Source of the DNA: a virus
IMG/VR virus record: IMGVR_UViG_3300013132_000261
Span: 1 to 23,762 of that record
DNA: 23,762 nt
Reading direction: 5' to 3' (one strand)
Shown: piece after piece, positions 1-15,563 of the stretch
Numbering within the stretch: the first letter of the stretch is position 1
Layout: each line of letters starts with the position of its first letter
Notes under the pieces: generated by a model
The model's database searches: none
Told to the model about the DNA's origin: nothing
Seen by the model: only the letters and a program-made list of their open reading frames with translations
Translations under genes and position numbers: made by a program

Positions 1-815
1 AACGAGTTATTCCATAAATTCCACATATCCCCAGCAGGCCCCCGTAACTGCCCACTAATCTGCACCGGTCTGTCTTGCGAATCCCTCACAACTTCAAAGC
101 CAACCGTACATCTGCAATTGCATACATTCCCTGCACTACCATTCGGATCACCTGGATATTCCATGATGTCAACTACTCCCATTCCTGGAACGGTGAACGG
201 TTGATCCGTTGGTACTTGTTTCCCATCCATGTGAAGATGATCGAATTTATCACGTGGTATTCTTCGAGTGCGATCATCATTCGTACTTATCCATTCTTTC
301 ACGGTAACAAGTCCTGTTGATACTGCACCAAGTAACGCTCCCTGATTTGCTGCCCTTGTTGTTTCTGTTCGTGCAATCAGTTCAGCACGGTAAGCATTGA
401 TACCTAACTTTTCAAGTTCACGCATCATCTCCATTATTGACCATCCTTCCTGCATTCCCTTTGTGAGAATCTTGCGCATATCTTCTTTTGTGGTTGATGT
501 TATGCCACCGGTCAACTTATCAAGTCCGCCCTCAAGCAGCATCTTAATAATCATCGCCCATCTTTGTTGAGGGGTCAAGTCATTCTTTACACCTGCCTTG
601 CGCATTACTTTGTCATAACTATACTTTGCCATTTGTAGCCCTGCCCCATTATGCAGATTGCGGATGGCACGTTTCAAACCCTCCTGGTCAGGTTCTTCGC
701 CTTTCAGTATTTGCCGGCATTGCTTATCAAGTTCACGCTTGATTATAACCCGGTACTTTTTGCGGTATGCGTTATACAGTTGGCGGTACATCTGTTGGCA
801 GTATGCTAAAATCAT
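1..815 (-). CDS. MuF-like minor head / head morphogenesis protein (3' end cut by window)
   Basis: Frame is open from 815 to the window edge, so the protein is C-terminally incomplete (271 codons seen). The middle shows a typical MuF (SPP1 gp7-like) core: ARTETTRAANQGAL, then WISTNDDRTR, an HMDG motif, and the terminal cluster GSAGNVCNCRC. This family is a minor capsid protein made just after the portal and thought to act in head assembly or DNA ejection. It overlaps the end of the portal gene by 44 bp from the ATG at 815, or by 20 bp from the ATG at 791. I see no ribosome site that decides between them. Order terminase-portal-MuF is the classical packaging order, which supports the call. Confidence 0.85.
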   Translation of the reverse strand, partial: MILAYCQQMYRQLYNAYRKKYRVIIKRELDKQCRQILKGEEPDQEGLKRAIRNLHNGAGLQMAKYSYDKVMRKAGVKNDLTPQQRWAMIIKMLLEGGLDKLTGGITSTTKEDMRKILTKGMQEGWSIMEMMRELEKLGINAYRAELIARTETTRAANQGALLGAVSTGLVTVKEWISTNDDRTRRIPRDKFDHLHMDGKQVPTDQPFTVPGMGVVDIMEYPGDPNGSAGNVCNCRCTVGFEVVRDSQDRPVQISGQLRGPAGDMWNLWNNS

Positions 816-2136
816 CAATCGGTTGCAAACCGGAAGGAATGTATAATTTCTGATAATCTTCTAACGGAACATTCGGGTCAGGTGCAAGGCCCTGAATCTT
901 TAACTTTTGTTCGGGTGTTAACCACCATGAAGTGTTCAGCCAAGTCGCTTGTTCCCCTCTGTTGGCTTCAAGTTCCTGATATACCGACATATCGAAGTCC
1001 ACGCAAATATCCGTTCCTTTATATCCCCAATCCGTGTATAATTTGCGGTTGATGTTGTCACGGATTGACACTAATTCCGGCAAAACGGCACGCAAAGTGA
1101 GGGATTTCTCCGCTTCTTTCATATTGTTATACGTTGCGGCTTCCTGACTGCCCAATAGAACTGGAGGAACACCGTAAATGCTGCATAGTGCTTCCTTATC
1201 CCATTTTTCCGATTCAATCAGTTGCAAGTCCTTTGCAGGTACGCCCATTTGCTGCCATCCTACTTTGTAACCCGATACTGCCGTACTTCCATACTTGCCG
1301 GCTCCAGTGTTGGCAGATATTTGCTGCTTTAGTGCTTGTCCTTGACTTTGTCCGGACATTGGATCGAAACGTACATCATCCATATAAAGTACGCCTAACG
1401 GCCCCATATTGTCAAACATCGCCACACTTGCCTCCTTTGATGAATTGGAACGGGTCAATACCTTACTTGCTGCCCGTAATGGTGAAAGACCGTATAACTG
1501 CCCACCAGTTGCACTCCATTCAGGATTAAAGTACTTGTCATGCAATATCTCTAACGTATTGAATGGAATGTATTGCCCGTAATACAACTGATAGGCAACT
1601 TTTTTCGGTGGGAATTGTTCAATGTCAACCTTTACTGCCATGTACTGACTGGGCAGCATATAAACCTCAAGCGGCTTGCCCTTGTTAACGGAAGCATCCC
1701 CCACCATCTTTGCATACATAAAGGCATTGCCCGTTATCTTCTTAAACCCCACCCATTGTTCAATGACGTCTGCCCATGTATCTTCAGGGTTCGGGTATTT
1801 GAGCATTTCCTCCAATCTTACATCCCTATATGGCTCCAACGCTTCATCCTTCAACTCCATCATTTTACGGATGTCGGGACTGCGGTCATTCAGCATTGCT
1901 TTGTACTTTTTCGCTGCATCTTTATTCTTTATGCGATACACTCCCCACGGTGCGACTTTTGCTTTTTGGGTGATTAGCTGAATGATAGCATAGACAAGGT
2001 CATTACCTACATAGCTATCCTTTACTATCTCTGCCTGATTTTGCCCGTCCCATGTAAGTAACCCACGCTCAACCGATATTTGAACAGGTGATTTTATTGG
2101 TGCTGCTTTTTTACGCAGAAAATCAAATACCCCCAT
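772..2136 (-). CDS. Phage portal protein (HK97-type)
   Basis: A 454-residue protein of normal portal length. It has the family look: N-terminal MGVFDFLRKK, 'VYAIIQLITQKAKVAPW' in the first 70 residues, a central 'YGLSPLRAASKVL' and 'GPLGVLYMDD', and a C-terminal part with 'ALCSIYGVPPVLLG' followed by 'NNMKEAEKSL', which are recurring HK97/PF04860-type portal segments. Portal dodecamers sit at one capsid vertex and form the DNA channel and packaging-motor dock. It follows the large terminase gene by 36 bp and overlaps the MuF-like gene. A possible promoter lies in the short gap before it. Confidence 0.92.
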   Translation of the reverse strand: MGVFDFLRKKAAPIKSPVQISVERGLLTWDGQNQAEIVKDSYVGNDLVYAIIQLITQKAKVAPWGVYRIKNKDAAKKYKAMLNDRSPDIRKMMELKDEALEPYRDVRLEEMLKYPNPEDTWADVIEQWVGFKKITGNAFMYAKMVGDASVNKGKPLEVYMLPSQYMAVKVDIEQFPPKKVAYQLYYGQYIPFNTLEILHDKYFNPEWSATGGQLYGLSPLRAASKVLTRSNSSKEASVAMFDNMGPLGVLYMDDVRFDPMSGQSQGQALKQQISANTGAGKYGSTAVSGYKVGWQQMGVPAKDLQLIESEKWDKEALCSIYGVPPVLLGSQEAATYNNMKEAEKSLTLRAVLPELVSIRDNINRKLYTDWGYKGTDICVDFDMSVYQELEANRGEQATWLNTSWWLTPEQKLKIQGLAPDPNVPLEDYQKLYIPSGLQPIDDFSILPTDVPPTV

Positions 2137-2152
2137 AATTAAGATTTAGTGA

Positions 2153-2180
2153 CAAAATTACATTGAAATATGTTACCAAA
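2153..2180 (-). promoter_or_regulatory. Possible Bacteroidetes-type promoter before the portal gene
   Basis: On the minus strand, TTTG (2180-2177) is followed 16 nt later by TAATTTTG (2160-2153), matching the TAnnTTTG -7 consensus. The spacing is shorter than the usual 19-21 nt. The upstream box reads TTTGGTAACAT, like the other promoters in this window. The portal ATG at 2136 is about 17 nt downstream of the -7 box. Confidence 0.35.
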
Positions 2181-3348
2181 CTGCCACCTGGAACTGGGGT
2201 TTGTGCAAGTGGGTAAAGATGGCATAACGCATAGCATCCATTGCATCATCATTTTCCTTCACCGGTTCATCGATAACACTATCATTTTTATCCTTCTTCC
2301 ATTTGTAGCTTTGCAATTCGCGAATTGTATCTCTGCTATCCTTGTGAACATACAACGGATAAGATTTTACTTTCAGTATGCCGGGCCATACTTCCTTATT
2401 TGCCGGCATAGCATTAATGCCACCTCTGTAAAGTTCCTCAATGCTTTTCGGCTCTGCTGCATCGCAGTACACGGGTTTGCGGTCATGGATGTGGTCCTTC
2501 ACCTCCTTTATCATTTCCGAAGGCGTCAGCCCTGACTTGTATAACAACTGTTTCACATAGTTTGCCCCTTCGTAATGCACTACCTTAACGAGTGCCAACG
2601 GGTGAACATATCCAAAGTCAAGGCCGTAGAACGTGTCGCCACCTTCGGGCAGCTCATCGGTTAGCATCCACTTTGTATAAATGATTTCCTTCGCTGCACC
2701 ACGTTCACCAAGGCCATAAACCTTCCACATGAAGTCATCGGGCAGGTTTTTATAGCTTTCAATGGTGTCAATCTGCATTTGTGACAGATTGGTTATGTTG
2801 TGTTCGTAAGTGGAATGTATTTTTTTGTACTTGGGATTGTCTGCCATTTCATACACCCAACTAACGAAGTCAGCAGGGTTCCAGTCAAGGAAGATTGTAC
2901 CCGTTGTACGCATTGCCAACTGATCGTATAGAACTTTGCGGATTAGGTTCGCCTCATTGACAAATAATATATCCCTACCCGGCCCCCTTGCCTTGCCTTC
3001 ATCCTCCAATCCGAATAGTTCAATATAACTGCCATTGTCGAAACGGTAAACAAAGTCCGTAAACGAGAACATATCATCATCCCAAATGCCCCAACCTTCC
3101 ATTATTGTTCGCAGGTCACGGTATGCACCTCGTTTGATGTGTGGTAATGAGTGAGAAACTATACTTATACGCTTGCCAGGTTCATTCGTTGCGATTTGAA
3201 CGAGCAACTGCACAATCGAATATGATTTACTTGATCGTGATCCCCCTTCATTACAGATTACGGGGTATCCCTGCTGATATGCTTTTGCATTTGCGGTGAA
3301 TACGTGTGTTACCTTAACTGGTTTTGATTCCACATTCTTTGAACTCAT
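2173..3348 (-). CDS. terL: Terminase large subunit
   Basis: 391 residues with the two-domain packaging-motor layout. N-terminal ATPase: Walker A-like GGSRSSKS (residues 35-42) and Walker B FVNEAN (128-133). C-terminal RNase H-like nuclease: GLDFGY with D243, YCDAAEP with D295, and the late acidic motif NDDAMDAMRYA (about 365-374). It cuts concatemers and drives DNA into the prohead. The first 35 bp overlap the end of the methyltransferase gene, so the terL start is embedded in the last cargo gene. The portal gene follows. The putative small terminase is separated from it by about 3.8 kb of cargo, which is unusual. Confidence 0.95.
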   Translation of the reverse strand: MSSKNVESKPVKVTHVFTANAKAYQQGYPVICNEGGSRSSKSYSIVQLLVQIATNEPGKRISIVSHSLPHIKRGAYRDLRTIMEGWGIWDDDMFSFTDFVYRFDNGSYIELFGLEDEGKARGPGRDILFVNEANLIRKVLYDQLAMRTTGTIFLDWNPADFVSWVYEMADNPKYKKIHSTYEHNITNLSQMQIDTIESYKNLPDDFMWKVYGLGERGAAKEIIYTKWMLTDELPEGGDTFYGLDFGYVHPLALVKVVHYEGANYVKQLLYKSGLTPSEMIKEVKDHIHDRKPVYCDAAEPKSIEELYRGGINAMPANKEVWPGILKVKSYPLYVHKDSRDTIRELQSYKWKKDKNDSVIDEPVKENDDAMDAMRYAIFTHLHKPQFQVAVW

Positions 3349-3892
3349 CTAACGTGCAAAATTTTTCATTAACCTTTTGAAGTACCGAATACACATTCCA
3401 ACCGTCTGTATAGTTGCCCATAGCAGCAACACTACCAACGCAGAGCAAATTATAACCACATTTGGCAGCAAGTTCACGATAAAAGTTTTCGGTGTAGTAG
3501 TTGAAGCCATGACCGGGCCAGTTGCCTGTCTTTGGGTTTTCGCTGATGATGTATCCTCCGACCTTAACGAGGTTGTGTTTGTTCTTCCAGCAGTTGTAGA
3601 TTGCTTTGATGTCATGCTTGCCACCGGTCCCAACGTGTTCGGATGTGCCAGCATCCACGAGTAGATCATATTGCTTTTCAAATTTTTGCAATTTTGATAA
3701 GTCCAACGGGGTGCTTCCGTTCTCCCCTGAAATGTCGATTGCTTCATAGTCCTTCCCTTTATAGTAGGTATCTTTAACGTATGGTGCCGGCAAAGGTACA
3801 CGGTAATCATTCTGCGCACCCAAGTCAACAACCGATTGAACGTGCTGCAGGTACTTGTCTATGATGTTTGTTGTTTCGTGAGTGTAGCCCAT
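3314..3892 (-). CDS. Class I SAM-dependent methyltransferase-like protein
   Basis: 192 residues. A Rossmann methyltransferase pattern is visible: glycine motif VVDLGAQ (21-27), an acidic strand end AIDIS (51-55), the post-II strand YDLLVDAGTSEHV (75-87), and a late NLVKVGGYIISENP segment (107-120). This is consistent with SAM binding; the methyl acceptor is unknown. Neighbours are glycosyltransferase-like genes, so a sugar or glycoconjugate acceptor is a reasonable inference. Its 3' end overlaps the terL start by 35 bp, and its start is 1 nt from the end of the upstream gene, so it belongs to the same transcript. Confidence 0.7.
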   Translation of the reverse strand: MGYTHETTNIIDKYLQHVQSVVDLGAQNDYRVPLPAPYVKDTYYKGKDYEAIDISGENGSTPLDLSKLQKFEKQYDLLVDAGTSEHVGTGGKHDIKAIYNCWKNKHNLVKVGGYIISENPKTGNWPGHGFNYYTENFYRELAAKCGYNLLCVGSVAAMGNYTDGWNVYSVLQKVNEKFCTLDEFKECGIKTS

Positions 3893-3893
3893 G

Positions 3894-4619
3894 TTAATTA
3901 TCTTTTACCCCCCAATTTATGAAATAAGGTTCAACCGGTAGGTAATGCCGGTATGCCAACCCACCATACGGCTGAACGGGAATGCCGTTCATATTCATTA
4001 GTGCCGACAATAATGCTTGGTCATGCCGGCTGCTTATGTAGTGTGGGTTTTTTGACTCGTCATGGTGGAAACAATTATTCTTTGCGCCCTCTATCCACTT
4101 TTCAAATATCGGCATTGTTTTCCGGTGGTCGAAGTCAAAGACAATGCAGCAGGCCATTATCTGATACATTTGCATAACATCCTGATAGCTATTAAGCCCC
4201 AACCATTCTATTTGATGGTCGGGCATATACTTGTGTAGCGGATGCCCTTCATTGTTCCAGGCGATTATCCCGTGTTCAGATGCCAGTTCCCACAACGGGT
4301 CGGGGTTCTGTATTACCCTGATAGTCGAATCGCACCAAATGATTTTCCTATACCCAAGTTCCAACGCCTCGGCAATCATAAAGGGTTTGAACTGATACGG
4401 CATATTTTGGTGGCTCCACGATTCGCCCCACTTACTTGATACAGGCCATTGACCTGTGAGTATTTGCCTTTGTTGGTACACATCGACATAACCATCCACA
4501 CTACGAAGGTGAGTGTCATAATGCGCAGCATGGCGGTTGATTGACTTAATTAGTCCTAACTGCGCCGCATTGTAGTTTTCCCGACCGGTGGAGGAAAGTG
4601 AAACGATTACCTTGCCCAT
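3894..4619 (-). CDS. GT-A-like glycosyltransferase (nucleotide-sugar transferase fold)
   Basis: 241 residues. It starts with a strand, MGKVIVSLSSTGRENY, and carries a donor-site-like 'KPFMIAEALELGYRKIIWCDST' stretch (78-98), where the CDST acidic motif sits where GT-A enzymes hold the metal/nucleotide sugar. Later 'HDQALLSALM' resembles the end of GT-A catalytic domains. No signal peptide or membrane segment is seen, so it is likely cytosolic. Donor and acceptor cannot be read from sequence. The first 14 bases of this gene are repeated exactly at the start of the next small ORF upstream (4858-4871), which suggests an insertion at this junction. Confidence 0.65.
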   Translation of the reverse strand: MGKVIVSLSSTGRENYNAAQLGLIKSINRHAAHYDTHLRSVDGYVDVYQQRQILTGQWPVSSKWGESWSHQNMPYQFKPFMIAEALELGYRKIIWCDSTIRVIQNPDPLWELASEHGIIAWNNEGHPLHKYMPDHQIEWLGLNSYQDVMQMYQIMACCIVFDFDHRKTMPIFEKWIEGAKNNCFHHDESKNPHYISSRHDQALLSALMNMNGIPVQPYGGLAYRHYLPVEPYFINWGVKDN

Positions 4620-4871
4620 TTGTTATTCGTTTTTGAGTGTTACTTCGCCATGAAAGTCAATAAAACTATCCATATTCCATTCATTTAGATATTTTCCAAT
4701 ACTGTAAGAATTAATACCTAAAAATCCACTAATGATTCCAGAAACAATGCATCCACTTCCAGGTGCTATCATTAAAACAATCAAAGACGTGTATTTGTCT
4801 TTCATTAATTTTGGAAACTCATGTTCTTTCTTTGTAACATTTTCAGTTACTACGCTTATTACCTTGCCCAT
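4606..4871. repeat. 14-bp direct repeat flanking the 82-aa ORF
   Basis: The sequence attaccttgcccat occurs at 4606-4619 and 4858-4871, 252 bp apart. Each copy encodes the start MGKV(I) on the minus strand. The upstream copy also contains the stop of the FkbM gene, so removing one 252-bp period would leave the FkbM gene directly overlapping the glycosyltransferase gene. 252 is a multiple of three. Confidence 0.9.
4623..4871 (-). CDS. Small unknown protein; faint resemblance to a sulfotransferase N-terminus
   Basis: 82 residues, function not recognised with confidence. After a short lead, a hydrophobic strand leads into APGSGCIVSGIISGFLGIN (36-54), which looks like the phosphosulfate-binding loop and first helix of sulfotransferase-family proteins, but the protein stops soon after and lacks the rest. 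It could be a truncated domain or an unrelated small protein. Its start overlaps the end of the FkbM gene (shared ATATGGGCAAGGTAA), and it lies exactly between two copies of a 14-bp repeat, so it appears to be a recent insertion. More AT-rich than the genes beside it. Confidence 0.45.
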   Translation of the reverse strand: MGKVISVVTENVTKKEHEFPKLMKDKYTSLIVLMIAPGSGCIVSGIISGFLGINSYSIGKYLNEWNMDSFIDFHGEVTLKNE

Positions 4872-5539
4872 ATGACGTTTTCTAAATTGAGAAGTAAAGA
4901 TTTATTTAACCCTGCTTTATTGCAGTATTCTTTTATCATGTGATACAGGTCAGCATTGCCGTTGTGTTCAATGCATAACATATCAGTATATTTCAGATTG
5001 ATTTGTTCCAGTATTTCATAGTCCACACCCTCAGCATCAATGGAAATGAAGTCGAATGTTTTATAGGGTGATTTTGTTAATAGTGTCTTAAATGTCCATA
5101 CCTCGGTCATTCGTTCTTTGAACTCCACACCGGGCCAACGCTTCAGCTCTGTTTTCTTTATGGTTGAAAGTAACGATACATCACGGGTGCCTAAATGCTC
5201 ACCCATTTCGTGAAATGTACAGGTGCCATCGGTATTGCCTATGGCTACATTGAATTTATGCACAAATGGGGTGACTGGGATGCGGTTGAACGCTTCCTCC
5301 GATGGTTCAATCAGTACCCCACTCCATCCTGATTTCTGCAAGGCATAGGTGTTGGATAAGGTAACCCCATCATTAGCACCGATGTCGAGGAAGGTGCCTT
5401 TGCGGTCTTTGAAGTAGTGCAGGATTATATCCTGTTCGTTGTTTTGTGAGTATCGTATCATATCGTATTGTATCGTATCATAAAGTCCATTTAATTCATC
5501 TGCTTGCATTACTTCAATTAGCAGTTGTTTGCGGTTCAT
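4859..5539 (-). CDS. FkbM-family methyltransferase
   Basis: 226 residues from the ATG at 5539. FkbM signatures are clear: FLDIGANDGVTLSNTYAL for SAM binding, GVLIEPS on the next strand, and FDFISIDAEGVDYEIL near the end. FkbM enzymes O-methylate sugars or other small molecules, often in surface-polysaccharide loci. I chose MNRKQLL as start because the same sequence begins the small ORF upstream, where it overlaps the GT2 stop codon, probably the ancestral arrangement. An in-frame ATG at 5581 would add 14 residues, but these come from a short repeat. Residues after the start include YDTIQYDMIRY, coded by a 10-bp tandem repeat. Confidence 0.85.
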   Translation of the reverse strand: MNRKQLLIEVMQADELNGLYDTIQYDMIRYSQNNEQDIILHYFKDRKGTFLDIGANDGVTLSNTYALQKSGWSGVLIEPSEEAFNRIPVTPFVHKFNVAIGNTDGTCTFHEMGEHLGTRDVSLLSTIKKTELKRWPGVEFKERMTEVWTFKTLLTKSPYKTFDFISIDAEGVDYEILEQINLKYTDMLCIEHNGNADLYHMIKEYCNKAGLNKSLLLNLENVIWAR

Positions 5540-5583
5540 TGTAAATATCGAACTATTAAATAAGCAATTGTATCGTATCATAA
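5451..5583. repeat. Short repeat tatcgtatca, three in tandem plus one displaced copy
   Basis: Units at 5451-5460, 5461-5470 (tatcgtattg variant) and 5471-5480 are in tandem inside the FkbM gene. A further copy lies at 5571-5580. The 16-mer ttgtatcgtatcataa is present at 5468-5483 and at 5568-5583, exactly 100 bp apart. Inside the gene the repeat encodes the YDTIQYDMIRY segment. Confidence 0.85.
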
Positions 5584-5806
5584 TACCTGCAAGGGCTATA
5601 GACGAACTTTGTCTATAAACTTACAAGTGCTTTTTATTGGGTTATATTCTATTTTTAGTATTATGTAATTGTCTTTAGTCTCATTTTGTTTCTTCATATA
5701 GTCACCACATCTTTCATAATCACTTACTGAAAAGTTTTTACAAAAATATTCTCGTTTTACCCATTCATCCCCCTTCGTAGAAAATAGCAGTTGTTTGCGG
5801 TTCATT
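5519..5806. repeat. 22-bp direct repeat flanking the 69-aa ORF
   Basis: A 22-bp sequence containing gcagttgtttgcggttcat is found at 5519-5540 and 5785-5806, 266 bp apart. On the minus strand both copies encode the protein start MNRKQLL. The right copy overlaps the stop of the GT2 gene in an ATGA arrangement; the left copy begins the FkbM gene. This fits insertion of about 266 bp at a stop/start junction with duplication of the gene start. Confidence 0.9.
5596..5805 (-). CDS. Small unknown protein inserted between GT2 and FkbM genes
   Basis: 69 residues, not recognised. It begins with MNRKQLLFSTKGDEW, whose first seven residues equal the start of the FkbM protein, then becomes lysine/tyrosine-rich with two cysteines (YFCKNF, YERCGD) and a third near the end (STCKF). 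Its ATG overlaps the GT2 stop as ATGA, so translation by coupling is likely. It lies between 22-bp direct repeats and is AT-rich, so it may be a by-product of insertion rather than a functional gene. Confidence 0.4.
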   Translation of the reverse strand: MNRKQLLFSTKGDEWVKREYFCKNFSVSDYERCGDYMKKQNETKDNYIILKIEYNPIKSTCKFIDKVRL

Positions 5807-6344
5807 TGTCAGTCCTGAATTGATAGTGATATAATTCTTTGTCAATCTTCACCTCGGTCTGCAATAGCTTACTATTGTGAATCGCAGTTGCCCACAAATA
5901 GTCCTCACCGATTTTAATGTCCTGAAATGCAAACTGAATCGCAATACTCCTGCGAATAGGTACAATGTGATTCGGGTACCGGTAATACGCCCCGTTCTTT
6001 GCCTCATATCCGTACTCCTTGCTTATGTACCACTTGCGCTCATCCTTTCCGTTGGTGGTCATTATGCCGTTAAATACAATTACATCGGGGTCTTGCTCTG
6101 CTGCTTTGAGAATATCGGAAACGTAAGTATCTGCAATTTCATCATCATCATCAACAAACACAACGTACTTTCCGGTTGACCGTTGCAGTAGTATATTTCG
6201 TTTCTTCCCAGTAGAAATAAAGCCGGCATCTGATTCTACCAATATCTCTACATCTTCTCTGCGTTGCGGTGCGAGTGATTGCAGTAACCTGGACAGGTAA
6301 CCTTCACGGCCTTGCAGGGTGCAGATTAGAATTGAGAGGGTCAT
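5802..6344 (-). CDS. Glycosyltransferase family 2
   Basis: 180 residues, short for GT2 but with the catalytic core. The start MTLSILICTLQGREGYLSRLL is a GT2 first strand and helix; a GKKRNILL motif (46-53) and YVVFVDDDDEI (60-70, the DxD metal/donor site) follow; GEDYLWATAIHN near residue 147 fits the acceptor-side ED motif. Likely cytosolic inverting transferase with unknown sugar. Its stop overlaps the ATG of the next ORF by 4 bp. It lies in the cargo cluster between the terminase subunit genes. Confidence 0.85.
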   Translation of the reverse strand: MTLSILICTLQGREGYLSRLLQSLAPQRREDVEILVESDAGFISTGKKRNILLQRSTGKYVVFVDDDDEIADTYVSDILKAAEQDPDVIVFNGIMTTNGKDERKWYISKEYGYEAKNGAYYRYPNHIVPIRRSIAIQFAFQDIKIGEDYLWATAIHNSKLLQTEVKIDKELYHYQFRTDK

Positions 6345-6366
6345 ACGTTATACCATTTCGTTGATG

Positions 6367-7128
6367 TCAACAATATGCTTTTGGAAATGCTGCCTTTGAC
6401 CTACGGATGTAGGTTATTTCATCGGCACGGAATGTTGATTGTGTTTTTTCTAATAAGGCATCCGGCCTTTCCCCAGTCCATGCAGGATGGACATGGTCAA
6501 AGATTTGTTTATTAACATATTTATGGCAGCCTCGTAATTTTGCCACATCCATTGCCTCATTATCGCACCAAAGGTTCTCGTATTGTGGATGGTAGATGTA
6601 GCCGTCACGGTCATAGTATGTCCTGCCCATGATTGACATGGTTGGGAGCAAATGGTTAACTCTGCCATCCGGGAAATGAATAAACTGGTCAAGATTGCCC
6701 TCGAATGCGTTAATGATGGCGATGTCATAGCCCGGCGCAATGAATCTCATATCATCGCTCATATTGACAACAATATCACCTTGCCAATCTACCATACCAC
6801 GGTTGATTGCATGTATTTTGTTTTTACTTGTTCCAGGCACAACGTATATCCGTTTGTCCTGAAGAACATCCATGAGTTGTGGTGAATCCAAAGTAGCCCT
6901 ATCATCATCATCAATGACAAGACCGATGGTGAAGTCCGATTTGTGGGAAAATGCTTTGATAGTTACGATTGCTGCTGCCATTTTATGTGGCCGGCTGCGA
7001 GTGGCAAAGTTGTAGTAAATGCGCATTGGGGATGCTTTGTGTTCACAAAAGTAACAAAATGATTTGGTGAAATCCATCTTTAACCGACAACATAGTTTTT
7101 CACATATTGTGCATTGTCTTTCATTCAT
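6367..7128 (-). CDS. Glycosyltransferase-like protein with N-terminal Cys cluster
   Basis: 253 residues. Residues about 35-130 look like a GT-A domain: MRIYYNFATRSRPHKM, then FTIGLVIDDDDRATL, a substrate-positioning NKIHAINRGM, and NMSDDM where a DxD-type motif is expected. The first 34 residues contain CTIC (6-9), CC (13-14) and CYFC (25-28), like a small zinc knuckle. An alternative start is the ATG at 7026 (MRIYYN), which would omit it. Neighbours are the putative small terminase upstream (33-nt gap) and the GT2 gene downstream (22-nt gap). Donor and acceptor unknown. Confidence 0.7.
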   Translation of the reverse strand: MNERQCTICEKLCCRLKMDFTKSFCYFCEHKASPMRIYYNFATRSRPHKMAAAIVTIKAFSHKSDFTIGLVIDDDDRATLDSPQLMDVLQDKRIYVVPGTSKNKIHAINRGMVDWQGDIVVNMSDDMRFIAPGYDIAIINAFEGNLDQFIHFPDGRVNHLLPTMSIMGRTYYDRDGYIYHPQYENLWCDNEAMDVAKLRGCHKYVNKQIFDHVHPAWTGERPDALLEKTQSTFRADEITYIRRSKAAFPKAYC

Positions 7129-7161: not shown

Positions 7162-7434
7162 TCATTCAATCGGCTTACATCCTGGGTCGGGAATGAGTTG
7201 GATTATTGTGGTGGGTTTGATAGGATTGTCGGGGTCGGTACCTACCTGCAATGGAATTAGTTTGGATGCAAGGCGATAGAACTCTGTCGGGTTGTTTTCT
7301 GCCCAGGTTCGTAGGTTAGATGTTTCATGGCTCTGCAATAACTCAAAAGCGGTCTGAAAACGCTCCCTGACCGTTTGTGTGACCTTATTGGGTGTTCCCT
7401 TACTTCGCCCTCCGTATTTTGCTCCTTTTGGCAT
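7162..7434 (-). CDS. Putative terminase small subunit / DNA-packaging protein
   Basis: 90 residues. The basic N-terminus GGRSKGTPNKVTQTVRERF is typical of short phage packaging proteins ('GRPKGTPNK...'), followed by helices and 'FYRLASKLIPLQVG', also recurrent in this group. Position upstream of terL in the same orientation and a promoter directly before it fit a small terminase that recognises DNA and recruits TerL. A clear helix-turn-helix is not visible, so the label rests on resemblance and context. A cargo cluster separates it from terL. Confidence 0.6.
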   Translation of the reverse strand: MPKGAKYGGRSKGTPNKVTQTVRERFQTAFELLQSHETSNLRTWAENNPTEFYRLASKLIPLQVGTDPDNPIKPTTIIQLIPDPGCKPIE

Positions 7435-7460: not shown

Positions 7461-7493
7461 CAAAGTTACCACATCCCCAGTTAAACTACCAAA
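7461..7493 (-). promoter_or_regulatory. Bacteroidetes-type promoter for the packaging/cargo operon
   Basis: Minus strand: TTTG (7493-7490), 21-nt spacer, TAACTTTG (7468-7461). The upstream box extends as TTTGGTAGTT, like other promoters in this window. The predicted start of transcription is about 20 nt before the ATG at 7434. The remainder of the 7435-7580 gap shows nothing else I can name. Confidence 0.6.
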
Positions 7494-14332: not shown

Positions 14333-14363
14333 CAAAGATAAAATATTTTTGGAAGTTACCAAA
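14333..14363 (-). promoter_or_regulatory. Promoter for the left (minus-strand) early operon
   Basis: TTTG (14363-14360), 19-nt spacer, TATCTTTG (14340-14333), a full match to the Bacteroidetes consensus. The ATG of the RecT-like gene at 14314 lies about 19 nt after the -7 box. The -33 box overlaps the -33 region of the opposing promoter within the inverted repeat TTTGGAAGTTACCAAA. Confidence 0.7.
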
Positions 14364-14378
14364 TTTTTTTTATTTTTG
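14348..14378 (+). promoter_or_regulatory. Promoter for the rightward early genes
   Basis: TTTG (14348-14351), 19-nt spacer, TATTTTTG (14371-14378). The first rightward ATG is at 14400, about 15 nt after the likely start of transcription. Its -33 box is the mirror of the leftward promoter's, so one regulator bound there could control both. Confidence 0.65.
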
Positions 14379-14399
14379 TGGAAATTAAACCTAAATACC

Positions 14400-14600
14400 A
14401 TGACAGACAACTACGACAACCCGGCATTTCCAATCATTGAGTTCTTGAATGAGCAGATAAAGAAGGAAGAGCAAGATAAAGAATTTTGGGCCTTAAGTAA
14501 AACAATAGGCGCGCAAAGATTATACACCTTGGCAGTTAATCGATTAGTTGCCTTTAAGGAAGTGTTGGAATTTGTTGAAGAAACATTTAAACCCGAATAA
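14400..14600 (+). CDS. Small early phage protein, first of three related ORFs
   Basis: 66 residues starting MTDNYDNPAF; the ATG at 14400 is preferred over the in-frame ATG at 14349 because the promoter lies between them. Helical, charged, ends EFVEETFKPE. That tail recurs in the next two proteins (NETFNPE, NETFKSE). The stop is separated from the next ATG by a single nucleotide (TAACATG). Function unknown; these small proteins are common in Bacteroidetes phage early regions. Confidence 0.65.
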   Translation: MTDNYDNPAFPIIEFLNEQIKKEEQDKEFWALSKTIGAQRLYTLAVNRLVAFKEVLEFVEETFKPE

Positions 14601-14601
14601 C

Positions 14602-14826
14602 ATGGCACAACAGACAGCAGTAGAATGGTTATTTGATGAATTATACAGAAGATTTGAAATGAAGGGGGATGGTATGGAAATGGATAAAGTACTTGAACAA
14701 GCATTACAAATGGAAAAAGAGAATCATGAAATCACCTTCAACGAAAGCAGATTAACGCATCCGATGATTGGATGGAAACACACAACATTTGACCAATACT
14801 ACAACGAAACCTTTAACCCCGAATAA
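14602..14826 (+). CDS. Small early phage protein ('TAVEWL' type)
   Basis: 74 residues from the ATG at 14602. The start MAQQTAVEWLFDELYRRF, the helix KVLEQALQMEKEN and the end FDQYYNETFNPE match a small family I know from Bacteroidetes phages, with no assigned function. The next gene follows after one nucleotide, and it resembles that protein over the QALQME and YYNETF segments, so the two are probably tandem duplicates that have diverged. Confidence 0.75.
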   Translation: MAQQTAVEWLFDELYRRFEMKGDGMEMDKVLEQALQMEKENHEITFNESRLTHPMIGWKHTTFDQYYNETFNPE

Positions 14827-14827
14827 C

Positions 14828-15043
14828 ATGACCGCAGTACAATCGCTACTCAACAACCTTCTTGGCTATGGCTTATTGCGTTTAAGCAAGGAAGAGAATA
14901 AGCTATATCAGGCATTGAAAGAACAAGCCCTGCAAATGGAAGAACAAAACGCGTTTGAAATATTCAAAGCAGGTCAGGATTCAATGGAAGAAGGAGGGAA
15001 GTCATTTGAACAATATTACAACGAAACCTTTAAATCAGAATAA
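14828..15043 (+). CDS. Small early phage protein, paralogue of the preceding gene
   Basis: 71 residues from the ATG at 14828. MTAVQSLLNNLLGYG, then EQALQMEEQNAFEIFKAGQDSMEEGGKSFEQYYNETFKSE. The second half is the conserved part of the family. Spacing to both neighbours is one nucleotide (TAACATG), which makes translation by re-initiation along the transcript likely. No motif suggests an enzymatic role. Confidence 0.75.
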   Translation: MTAVQSLLNNLLGYGLLRLSKEENKLYQALKEQALQMEEQNAFEIFKAGQDSMEEGGKSFEQYYNETFKSE

Positions 15044-15044
15044 C

Positions 15045-15326
15045 ATGGAAAGAATTTTCAGATTAGAATTTAATGAACAACAGCAAGTGTTTCATAAAGA
15101 CGATTATACTCATGAACAAAACACTTATGGATGGTTTACCATTTTTGAATTTTGCACCAATTTAGAGTTTGTGATTTACAAATCCTATGTAAACCGTATA
15201 AAAAAAGATAAACTTACAAAAAATTATCTTTTACAATGCGCTGTGGAAGTTAAATCCTTTATGATTAATTTGTTAGAATATAATATAAGTATTTCCCAAA
15301 ATAAAACACCCACCGATGGCAAATAA
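15045..15326 (+). CDS. Unknown early phage protein
   Basis: 93 residues from the ATG at 15045, one nucleotide after the previous stop. Begins MERIFRLEFNEQQQVFHKDDYTHEQNTYGWFTIFEF, rich in aromatic residues, and continues with a basic helical half (YVNRIKKDKLTKNYLLQ). AT-rich. Its end overlaps the start of the next gene by 11 bp. No family recognised. Confidence 0.65.
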   Translation: MERIFRLEFNEQQQVFHKDDYTHEQNTYGWFTIFEFCTNLEFVIYKSYVNRIKKDKLTKNYLLQCAVEVKSFMINLLEYNISISQNKTPTDGK

Positions 15327-15519
15327 ACAATCCAGGGCGGATGCTCTGCGTGAATTACTGAACACGGATCACATCTTCAACCTTTGCGCAATTGAGCGAA
15401 AATTGGGCATTAGGAAACTGAAACTTAACGAATGGCGTAATGGCCGGACATATTTAGAAGACACGGAAGTATTGAAAATCAGCAAGTTATTAGAAAATGC
15501 AACAAAGTTGCAAAAATAA
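15316..15519 (+). CDS. Small helix-turn-helix-like protein, putative regulator
   Basis: 67 residues. Helical throughout, with 'LLNTDHIFNLCAIERKLGIRKLKLNEWRNGRTYLEDTEVLKISKLL', where NLCAIERKLGIRKLKLNEWRNG could be a helix-turn-helix. This resembles short Cro-like phage proteins. A 12-bp tandem repeat overlaps its last codons and the following promoter, a plausible place for it to bind. Autoregulation is inference. Confidence 0.6.
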   Translation: MANKQSRADALRELLNTDHIFNLCAIERKLGIRKLKLNEWRNGRTYLEDTEVLKISKLLENATKLQK

Positions 15520-15531
15520 TTGCAAAAATAT
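15508..15531 (+). repeat. Tandem 12-bp repeat next to a promoter
   Basis: TTGCAAAAATAA (15508-15519) followed directly by TTGCAAAAATAT (15520-15531). It covers the end of the HTH-like gene and reaches the -33 box of the downstream promoter, so it could be an operator. Confidence 0.6.
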
Positions 15532-15563
15532 TTGGAAGTTGTGTATAAATACCCTTATCTTTG
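15531..15563 (+). promoter_or_regulatory. Bacteroidetes-type promoter
   Basis: TTTG (15531-15534), 21-nt spacer, TATCTTTG (15556-15563), followed by a gene at 15589. The -33 region reads TTTGGAAGTT, identical to the rightward early promoter at 14348. Confidence 0.7.

What the first reader, a model, noticed from the sequence alone, without database searches (positions are those of the whole stretch)
3314..7128. Sugar/methyl-transfer cargo between the small and large terminase genes
Six to seven genes (three GT-like, FkbM methyltransferase, class I methyltransferase, two small ORFs) separate the putative small terminase from terL. This region is normally compact in phages. Tight overlaps (1-35 bp) and one promoter at 7461-7493 imply co-expression with packaging genes, so the products may be made late and modify virion or host-surface glycans. 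Such a set is a plausible receptor-blocking or capsid-decoration system, although its function is not shown.
Basis: partly seen in the sequence, partly recalled or inferred. Interest (0 to 1): 0.7.

Follow-up and report, generated by a model that had tools for sequence, protein, structure and literature searches.

The report
Phage capsid sugar-coating gene set
A family of uncultured freshwater phages, probably infecting Bacteroidota, carries a fixed set of sugar-adding and methyl-adding enzymes inside its head-building genes, most likely to decorate its own capsid with methylated sugars; this is known from soil actinobacterial phages but, in the papers I could search, not described for this lineage or gene arrangement.

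Summary
Seven minus-strand genes (3314-7128) separate a TerS-like gene from TerL: three glycosyltransferase-like genes, an FkbM methyltransferase, a second putative methyltransferase and two small ORFs.

The "cargo" reading needs changing. All 27 relatives that span the interval carry the same five enzymes in the same order under purifying selection; only the small ORFs vary. A sister clade has TerS overlapping TerL directly and lacks all five.

The genus also has a sixth enzyme, a GT4, fixed between the major capsid gene and the next head gene; the sister clade lacks it too. Unrelated phages place a GT4 homologue next to capsid or terminase genes, usually with a methyltransferase. The cassette's GT2 is homologous to LittleE gp15 (next to the capsid gene) and to Che8 gp108 (a GT2-methyltransferase fusion in a phage whose capsid protein is glycosylated).

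Best explanation: a virion glycosylation/methylation system, inferred, confidence 0.6. Host-envelope modification is the main rival. DNA modification is disfavoured. No chemistry has been shown. New variant of a known kind.

The parts
7461..7493 (-). Bacteroidota-type promoter TTTG-N21-TAACTTTG upstream of TerS
   Evidence: 4 in window vs 0.75 expected; full motif upstream of TerS in 21/26 relatives, usually at -54; -7 element in 26/26
7162..7434 (-). TerS-like gene (90 aa)
   Evidence: synteny; phrog_11043; 42% homologue overlapping terminase large subunit gene in Sulfitobacter phage pCB2047-A; weak N-terminal profile match to sister-clade TerS
6367..7128 (-). Core enzyme 1: GT-A glycosyltransferase (253 aa) with N-terminal Cys pairs; SDDM motif invariant
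   Evidence: phrog_14945 E 4e-12; Pfam GT2 E 0.002; alignment A3
5802..6344 (-). Core enzyme 2: GT2 glycosyltransferase (180 aa), homologue of LittleE gp15 and N-terminal half of Che8 gp108
   Evidence: invariant DDDD and GED motifs
5596..5805 (-). small variable ORF (69 aa), accessory slot
   Evidence: found only in the near-identical relative L002
4859..5461 (-). Core enzyme 3: FkbM methyltransferase; probable true start 5461 (ORF listed from 5581)
   Evidence: PF05050 E 2e-15; TIGR01444 E 2e-12; alignment A5
4623..4871 (-). small variable ORF (82 aa), accessory slot; phrog_34898
3894..4619 (-). Core enzyme 4: putative GT-A/GT8-like glycosyltransferase (241 aa), no significant family match
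   Evidence: alignment A2; weak GT8 hit in 3/16 members, E 0.03; no match in phages, PDB or genome scan
3314..3892 (-). Core enzyme 5: putative class I methyltransferase (192 aa), motif I-like VVDLGAQND invariant, no family match
   Evidence: alignment A1
2173..3348 (-). large terminase TerL
   Evidence: PF04466/PF17288 and phrog_2
772..2136 (-). portal protein
   Evidence: PF04860 E 7e-43
1..771 (-). MuF-like gene, cut by the contig end; MCP and MCP-adjacent GT4 would lie beyond it
   Evidence: open frame; order in relatives

Best explanation
This is a virion glycosylation/methylation system built into the head-morphogenesis operon of a phage genus. One conserved promoter upstream of TerS transcribes TerS, three GT-A glycosyltransferases, two methyltransferases, TerL, portal, protease, major capsid protein (MCP), a GT4 glycosyltransferase and the head-completion genes. 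The soluble transferases would act in the host cytoplasm on capsid (or tail-tube) protein, building a short glycan, with FkbM and the second methyltransferase O-methylating it. An exchangeable slot before the second methyltransferase carries alternative methyltransferases in relatives and may vary the cap. Shown: gene content, order, conservation, co-occurrence with the MCP-adjacent GT4, promoter conservation, and homology to cassettes of phages with glycosylated virions. Inferred: enzymatic activities, the acceptor, the sugars, late timing and the benefit.
For: (1) All 27 loci spanning TerS to TerL carry all five enzymes in one order. Median dN/dS is 0.06-0.13 (TerL 0.044) and catalytic-type motifs are invariant. 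(2) A sixth enzyme (GT4, PF00534 E 9e-16) sits between MCP (PF05065) and the next head gene in every genus locus with that context; the MCP to next-gene gap is 975-994 bp, against 94-102 bp in the sister clade. (3) The sister clade (TerL 66-71% identical) lacks both the cassette and the GT4, and TerS overlaps TerL directly (G017 and G018 lack PF00534). (4) Independent recurrence: MCP-FkbM-GT4 in L217-L221 and L225; MCP-MTase-GT4 in L227; MCP-GT4 in L231 and L232; TerL-MTase-GT4-GT in L238; TurkishDelight GT4 lies between MCP and the major tail protein. (5) The window GT2 matches LittleE gp15 (38%, E 9e-36), directly after MCP, and Che8 gp108 (33%, E 6e-26), itself a GT2-methyltransferase fusion next to gp109-110. 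The Che8 MCP carries glycans (PMC11256854); Che8 gp110 and Corndog gp38 are essential for it (PMC12363180). (6) The five enzymes and the GT4 have no strongly hydrophobic stretch. There is one conserved upstream promoter and no further site of that type downstream in L055, L058, L068 or L070.
Against: No biochemical or mass-spectrometry evidence. The presence/absence contrast is one evolutionary event (genus against sister clade). The GT shown to be essential in Che8 (gp110) has no BLAST match in this cassette. Two of the five enzymes have no family match, so their chemistry rests on motifs. No serine/threonine enrichment or acceptor site was identified in the MCP (inconclusive). GTs made late could also act on host envelope precursors.
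Confidence: 0.6

Rival explanations
1. The enzymes modify the host envelope (LPS, capsule or S-layer glycan) late in infection, blocking re-adsorption of progeny to the cell or to debris (superinfection exclusion or receptor masking).
For: Phage GTs and FkbM-type methyltransferases are known from surface-polysaccharide modification; a comparable structural-module GT of Cellulophaga phage phi18:1 was discussed that way (PMC11946311). The cassette is co-expressed with packaging and head genes.
Against: No GtrA flippase in seven genus records; no membrane-spanning stretch in the enzymes; no recognised sugar-nucleotide pathway genes seen in the complete relative G002 (by inspection). The strict coupling to an MCP-adjacent GT4 and the homology to virion-glycosylation cassettes are not explained.
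Confidence: 0.2
2. The cassette glycosylates or methylates phage DNA bases (hypermodification) before packaging, hence its place between the terminase genes.
For: Position in the packaging operon. A member of the sister clade does carry a DNA-hypermodification set (ADDT E 9e-10, Tet_JBP E 3e-10, ParB-like, kinase) just upstream of TerS.
Against: No Tet_JBP and no thymidylate-synthase-type base hydroxymethylase in the genus, including the complete G002. The GT2 homologues lie in protein-glycosylation cassettes. The sister-clade GT-like protein has no BLAST match to the cassette GTs.
Confidence: 0.06
3. The set is ordinary mobile cargo (morons) that landed between TerS and TerL, with no link to the virion.
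For: The region is full of variable small ORFs and HNH genes, and a clade without the genes exists.
Against: All five enzymes are present in fixed order in 27 of 27 spanning relatives, under purifying selection, and they co-occur with an MCP-linked GT4. Only the small ORFs behave as cargo.
Confidence: 0.06

Closest known systems
Virion glycosylation cassettes of mycobacteriophages Che8 (cluster F, gp108-110) and Corndog (cluster O)
   Same: Several tandem small GTs plus an O-methyltransferase; the window GT2 is homologous to the GT2 half of Che8 gp108, whose other half is a TylF/Methyltransf_24-type methyltransferase. MCP glycans are shown for Che8 (PMC11256854); cluster O phages have three GTs downstream of an O-MTase (PMC11600133).
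   Different: Here the genes are split between the TerS-TerL gap and the MCP-next-gene gap; FkbM and a second methyltransferase are separate genes; a GT4 is included; the essential Che8 gp110 (GT25) has no counterpart found. Different phage lineage and probably a different host phylum.
Omegavirus LittleE (cluster J) capsid-adjacent GT block, gp15-gp21
   Same: GT2 homologue (38%) directly downstream of the major capsid gene, followed by further GTs and a methyltransferase-GT fusion, then head-tail connector genes.
   Different: Lies after MCP, not between the terminase genes; includes a kinase-domain protein; virion glycosylation was not read here as shown for cluster J.
Streptomyces phage TurkishDelight gp20
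   Same: GT4 homologue (28% over 95%) between the MCP and the major tail protein.
   Different: Larger protein (2037-bp gene); no terminase-linked cassette seen in the region read.
GtrABC-type serotype conversion
   Same: Phage-encoded glycosyltransferases.
   Different: Those modify host O-antigen through a membrane flippase and a lipid-linked sugar; GtrA is absent here.

Membership tests
Phage virion glycosylation system (actinobacteriophage type) | Phage encodes several GTs, typically with an O-methyltransferase | tested here: met
   GT2, second GT-A, GT4, FkbM; two further enzymes by motif only
Phage virion glycosylation system (actinobacteriophage type) | A GT homologous to a gene of a cassette in a phage with shown virion glycans | tested here: met
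   GT2 vs Che8 gp108, 33% over 181 aa, E 6e-26
Phage virion glycosylation system (actinobacteriophage type) | Homologue of the GT shown to be essential (Che8 gp110 / Corndog gp38) | tested here: not met
   no BLASTP match of any cassette protein to Che8 gp110 at E 0.1; Corndog record not in the collection
Phage virion glycosylation system (actinobacteriophage type) | Genetic linkage to virion structural genes | tested here: met
   TerS-TerL placement, MCP-adjacent GT4, single upstream promoter; linkage is not universal in the known systems (Che8 genes lie at the right end)
Phage virion glycosylation system (actinobacteriophage type) | Glycan covalently attached to capsid or tail protein | not testable with these tools
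   needs mass spectrometry of virions
DNA base hypermodification system | Base hydroxylase (TET/JBP) or dUMP/dCMP hydroxymethylase | tested here: not met
   PF12851 and PF00303 absent from genus records including complete G002
GtrABC serotype conversion | GtrA flippase and membrane-anchored GT | tested here: not met
   PF04138 absent in 7 records; no membrane-spanning stretch in the enzymes
Moron / auxiliary cargo | Patchy presence among close relatives | tested here: not met
   five enzymes in 27/27 spanning loci; small ORFs are patchy
Small terminase subunit (TerS) | Adjacent to TerL in related phages | tested here: met
   42% homologue overlaps the terminase large subunit gene in Sulfitobacter phage pCB2047-A
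Small terminase subunit (TerS) | Sequence family match to a known TerS | tested here: inconclusive
   phrog_11043 has unknown function; hhalign to sister-clade TerS covers only 17 residues at 58% probability

The most novel reading that the evidence does not exclude
A phage genus, probably infecting Bacteroidota, has made capsid glycosylation an obligatory part of head building, with six transferases split between the TerS-TerL gap and the MCP gap. It includes two enzyme families not in Pfam, PHROGs or NCBIfam, and an exchangeable methyltransferase slot (Methyltransf_11 or TylF type) that changes the glycan cap between strains.
Probability: 0.4. Interest if true: 0.62.

Novelty: new variant of a known kind. 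Interest (0 to 1): 0.48.

Why it matters
Capsid glycosylation in tailed phages was found in mycobacteriophages and explained mainly through antibody recognition. A fixed, selected system of the same enzyme classes in freshwater phages that meet no mammalian antibodies would point to a different benefit, such as capsid stability, protist grazing, adhesion or receptor decoys. It makes that question testable. It also gives a simple genomic signature (GT plus methyltransferase next to MCP or terminase genes) for finding glycosylated virions.

Tried and rejected
Cargo/moron reading: rejected for the five enzymes. DNA hypermodification: tested by searching for TET/JBP and thymidylate-synthase families, absent. 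GtrA: absent. Sigma-70 promoter: none at the site, but a Bacteroidota-type site is there. Genome scan with the 3894-4619 family found no cellular relative; genome scan with TerL found one short contig filed as a gammaproteobacterial MAG and distant hits, mostly in Flavobacteriia, so the host stays inferred. Serine/threonine comparison of MCPs was inconclusive because my out-group mixed lineages. Direct reading of the Freeman 2023 paper failed (not held); its results are cited through papers that quote it.

Full report
WHAT IS THERE. The window is a linear IMG/VR virus record of 23,762 bases. On the minus strand, in order of transcription, lie a promoter (7493-7461), a TerS-like gene (7434-7162), a GT-A glycosyltransferase (7128-6367), a GT2 glycosyltransferase (6344-5802), a small ORF (5805-5596), an FkbM methyltransferase (listed 5581-4859), a small ORF (4871-4623), a putative GT8-like glycosyltransferase (4619-3894), a putative class I methyltransferase (3892-3314), TerL (3348-2173), the portal (2136-772) and a MuF-like gene cut by the contig end. 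Family evidence is strong for GT2, FkbM, TerL and portal, moderate for the first GT, and absent for the last two enzymes, which rest on conserved motifs and a weak GT8 signal. The FkbM start is probably 5461, because 12 aligned relatives begin at M(I)R(Y/F)SQNNEQ.

CORE, NOT CARGO. A TerL scan of IMG/VR gave 80 relatives. Searching them with the window proteins showed that every locus spanning TerS to TerL (27 of 27) carries the same five enzymes in the same order. What varies is the filling between them: small ORFs, HNH genes, and in the slot before the last methyltransferase either a Methyltransf_11 enzyme (27 loci), a TylF-type enzyme (5 loci), a DNA N4/N6 methylase (2 loci) or small ORFs. 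Median dN/dS is 0.06-0.13 for the five enzymes against 0.044 for TerL and 0.20 for TerS. Catalytic-type motifs are invariant: SDDM, DDDD plus GED, FLDIGANDG and VVDLGAQND.

A SIXTH ENZYME NEXT TO THE CAPSID GENE. The window stops before the capsid gene, but longer relatives do not, including G002 (35,399 bp with a 123-bp direct terminal repeat, so taken as complete). There a GT4 glycosyltransferase (PF00534, E 9e-16) lies directly after the major capsid gene (PF05065) and before the next head gene. A scan with that GT4 shows the same position in every genus locus with that context. The MCP-to-next-gene gap is 975-994 bp in the genus.

THE SISTER CLADE LACKS BOTH. Phages with TerL 66-71%, portal about 50-56% and MCP about 46-59% identical have TerS overlapping TerL directly and an MCP-to-next-gene gap of 94-102 bp, with no GT4 and none of the five enzymes. 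Two of them, G017 and G018, also have no PF00534 hit anywhere in their records. This ties the cassette to the MCP-linked GT4. The contrast is one evolutionary event, so it supports the link but does not prove it.

INDEPENDENT RECURRENCE. A distant group has MCP, then FkbM methyltransferase, then GT4 (L217-L221, L225); L227 has MCP, a methyltransferase, a small gene and GT4; L231 and L232 have a Phage_capsid gene followed by GT4; L238 has TerL, a methyltransferase, GT4 and another GT. Among sequenced isolates the only full-length GT4 match is Streptomyces phage TurkishDelight gp20, between MCP and the major tail protein. The window GT2 has its best matches in actinobacteriophages. LittleE gp15 lies directly after MCP, and the Gordonia phage Mareelih homologue lies between the head-to-tail adaptor and the tail assembly chaperones; the Fryberger homologue lies outside the structural region. 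Che8 gp108 is a GT2 fused to a TylF/Methyltransf_24-type methyltransferase. That fusion is a direct link between this GT2 family and sugar-type methyltransferases.

PRECEDENT. Papers in the held library report that Che8 and Rita have glycans covalently attached to major capsid proteins (PMC11256854), that cluster O phages have three GTs downstream of an O-methyltransferase which modify capsid and tail tube (PMC11600133), and that Che8 gp110 and Corndog gp38 are essential for capsid glycosylation (PMC12363180). All cite Freeman et al. 2023, which I could not read. The homologue found here is to gp108, in the same three-gene set as gp110; gp110 itself has no match.

EXPRESSION AND HOST. The promoter at 7461-7493 fits TTTG-N21-TAnnTTTG, the Bacteroidota consensus (recalled, not looked up here). 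There are 4 such sites in the window against 0.75 expected, and 1 of 100 shuffles reached 4. The full motif lies upstream of TerS in 21 of 26 relatives, at -54 in most of them, and its -7 element in 26 of 26. No further site of this type is found downstream in L055, L058, L068 or L070. TerL matches to isolates are best among Parabacteroides, Phocaeicola and Bacteroides phages at 35-40%. A Bacteroidota host is therefore likely but inferred.

MECHANISM. The best-supported reading is that soluble GTs, co-made with head proteins, build a short glycan on a virion protein, with the capsid the favoured acceptor because of the MCP-linked GT4, and that the methyltransferases O-methylate it. The variable methyltransferase slot may alter the cap. 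Steps shown: anatomy, conservation, linkage, homology. Steps inferred: all chemistry, the acceptor, and the benefit.

RIVALS. Host-envelope modification cannot be excluded, but GtrA is absent, the enzymes are predicted soluble and the MCP linkage is unexplained by it. DNA modification lacks a base-hydroxylating enzyme in the genus, although a member of the sister clade does have such a set upstream of TerS. Cargo is refuted for the enzymes.

VERDICT. A real, conserved feature; a new variant of a known kind (virion glycosylation), in a new lineage with a new split arrangement and two unassigned enzyme families. Confidence 0.6 that virion proteins are the target.

Noticed in passing
L105:4085-6648; L098, L100, L102, L109 similar: Some sister-clade phages carry a DNA base hypermodification set just upstream of TerS: ParB-like plus ADDT (PF18724), kinase and Tet_JBP dioxygenase in L105; ParB-like plus a GT-like protein and a Tet_JBP-related protein in L109 and others.
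   Followed up: partly
L069-L077 (e.g. L070:9001-10983): TerL carries an in-frame insert of about 268-270 codons (CFVGETQI...FANGILVHNC) near the C-terminal nuclease motif that reads as an intein; the HNH_3 gene in L073 is read in another frame.
   Followed up: partly
L078:3049-5088: A second intein-like insert in TerL at the Walker A region (SR/CFAPDTRV...VHN/SSKS), with stops in the middle in the TerL frame, so degenerate or with an endonuclease in another frame.
   Followed up: no
window 4871/4619 and 5805/5539 (minus strand): Accessory small ORFs begin with a copy of the start region of the gene that follows (ATGGGCAAGGTAAT twice; ATGAACCGCAAACAA twice). In relatives HNH and small ORFs before the 3894-type gene also start MGKV. 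This suggests insertion with duplication of the translation start.
   Followed up: partly
window about 14350-15330 (+) and L010, L025, L045 cassette gaps: Many small ORFs share the N-terminus MAQQT and end in a YYNETF/YYKETY-like tail, in tandem in the early region and in the cassette gaps.
   Followed up: no
window 14333-14363 (-), 14348-14378 (+), 15531-15563 (+): Three further Bacteroidota-type promoter matches, two of them divergent and overlapping, at the switch point between the strands.
   Followed up: no
G009 (L087:6981-8635, minus strand): A more distant TerL relative without the cassette has two unassigned genes between MuF and protease that look to me like a GT (340 aa) and a heptosyltransferase fragment (94 aa); neither has a Pfam hit.
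   Followed up: partly
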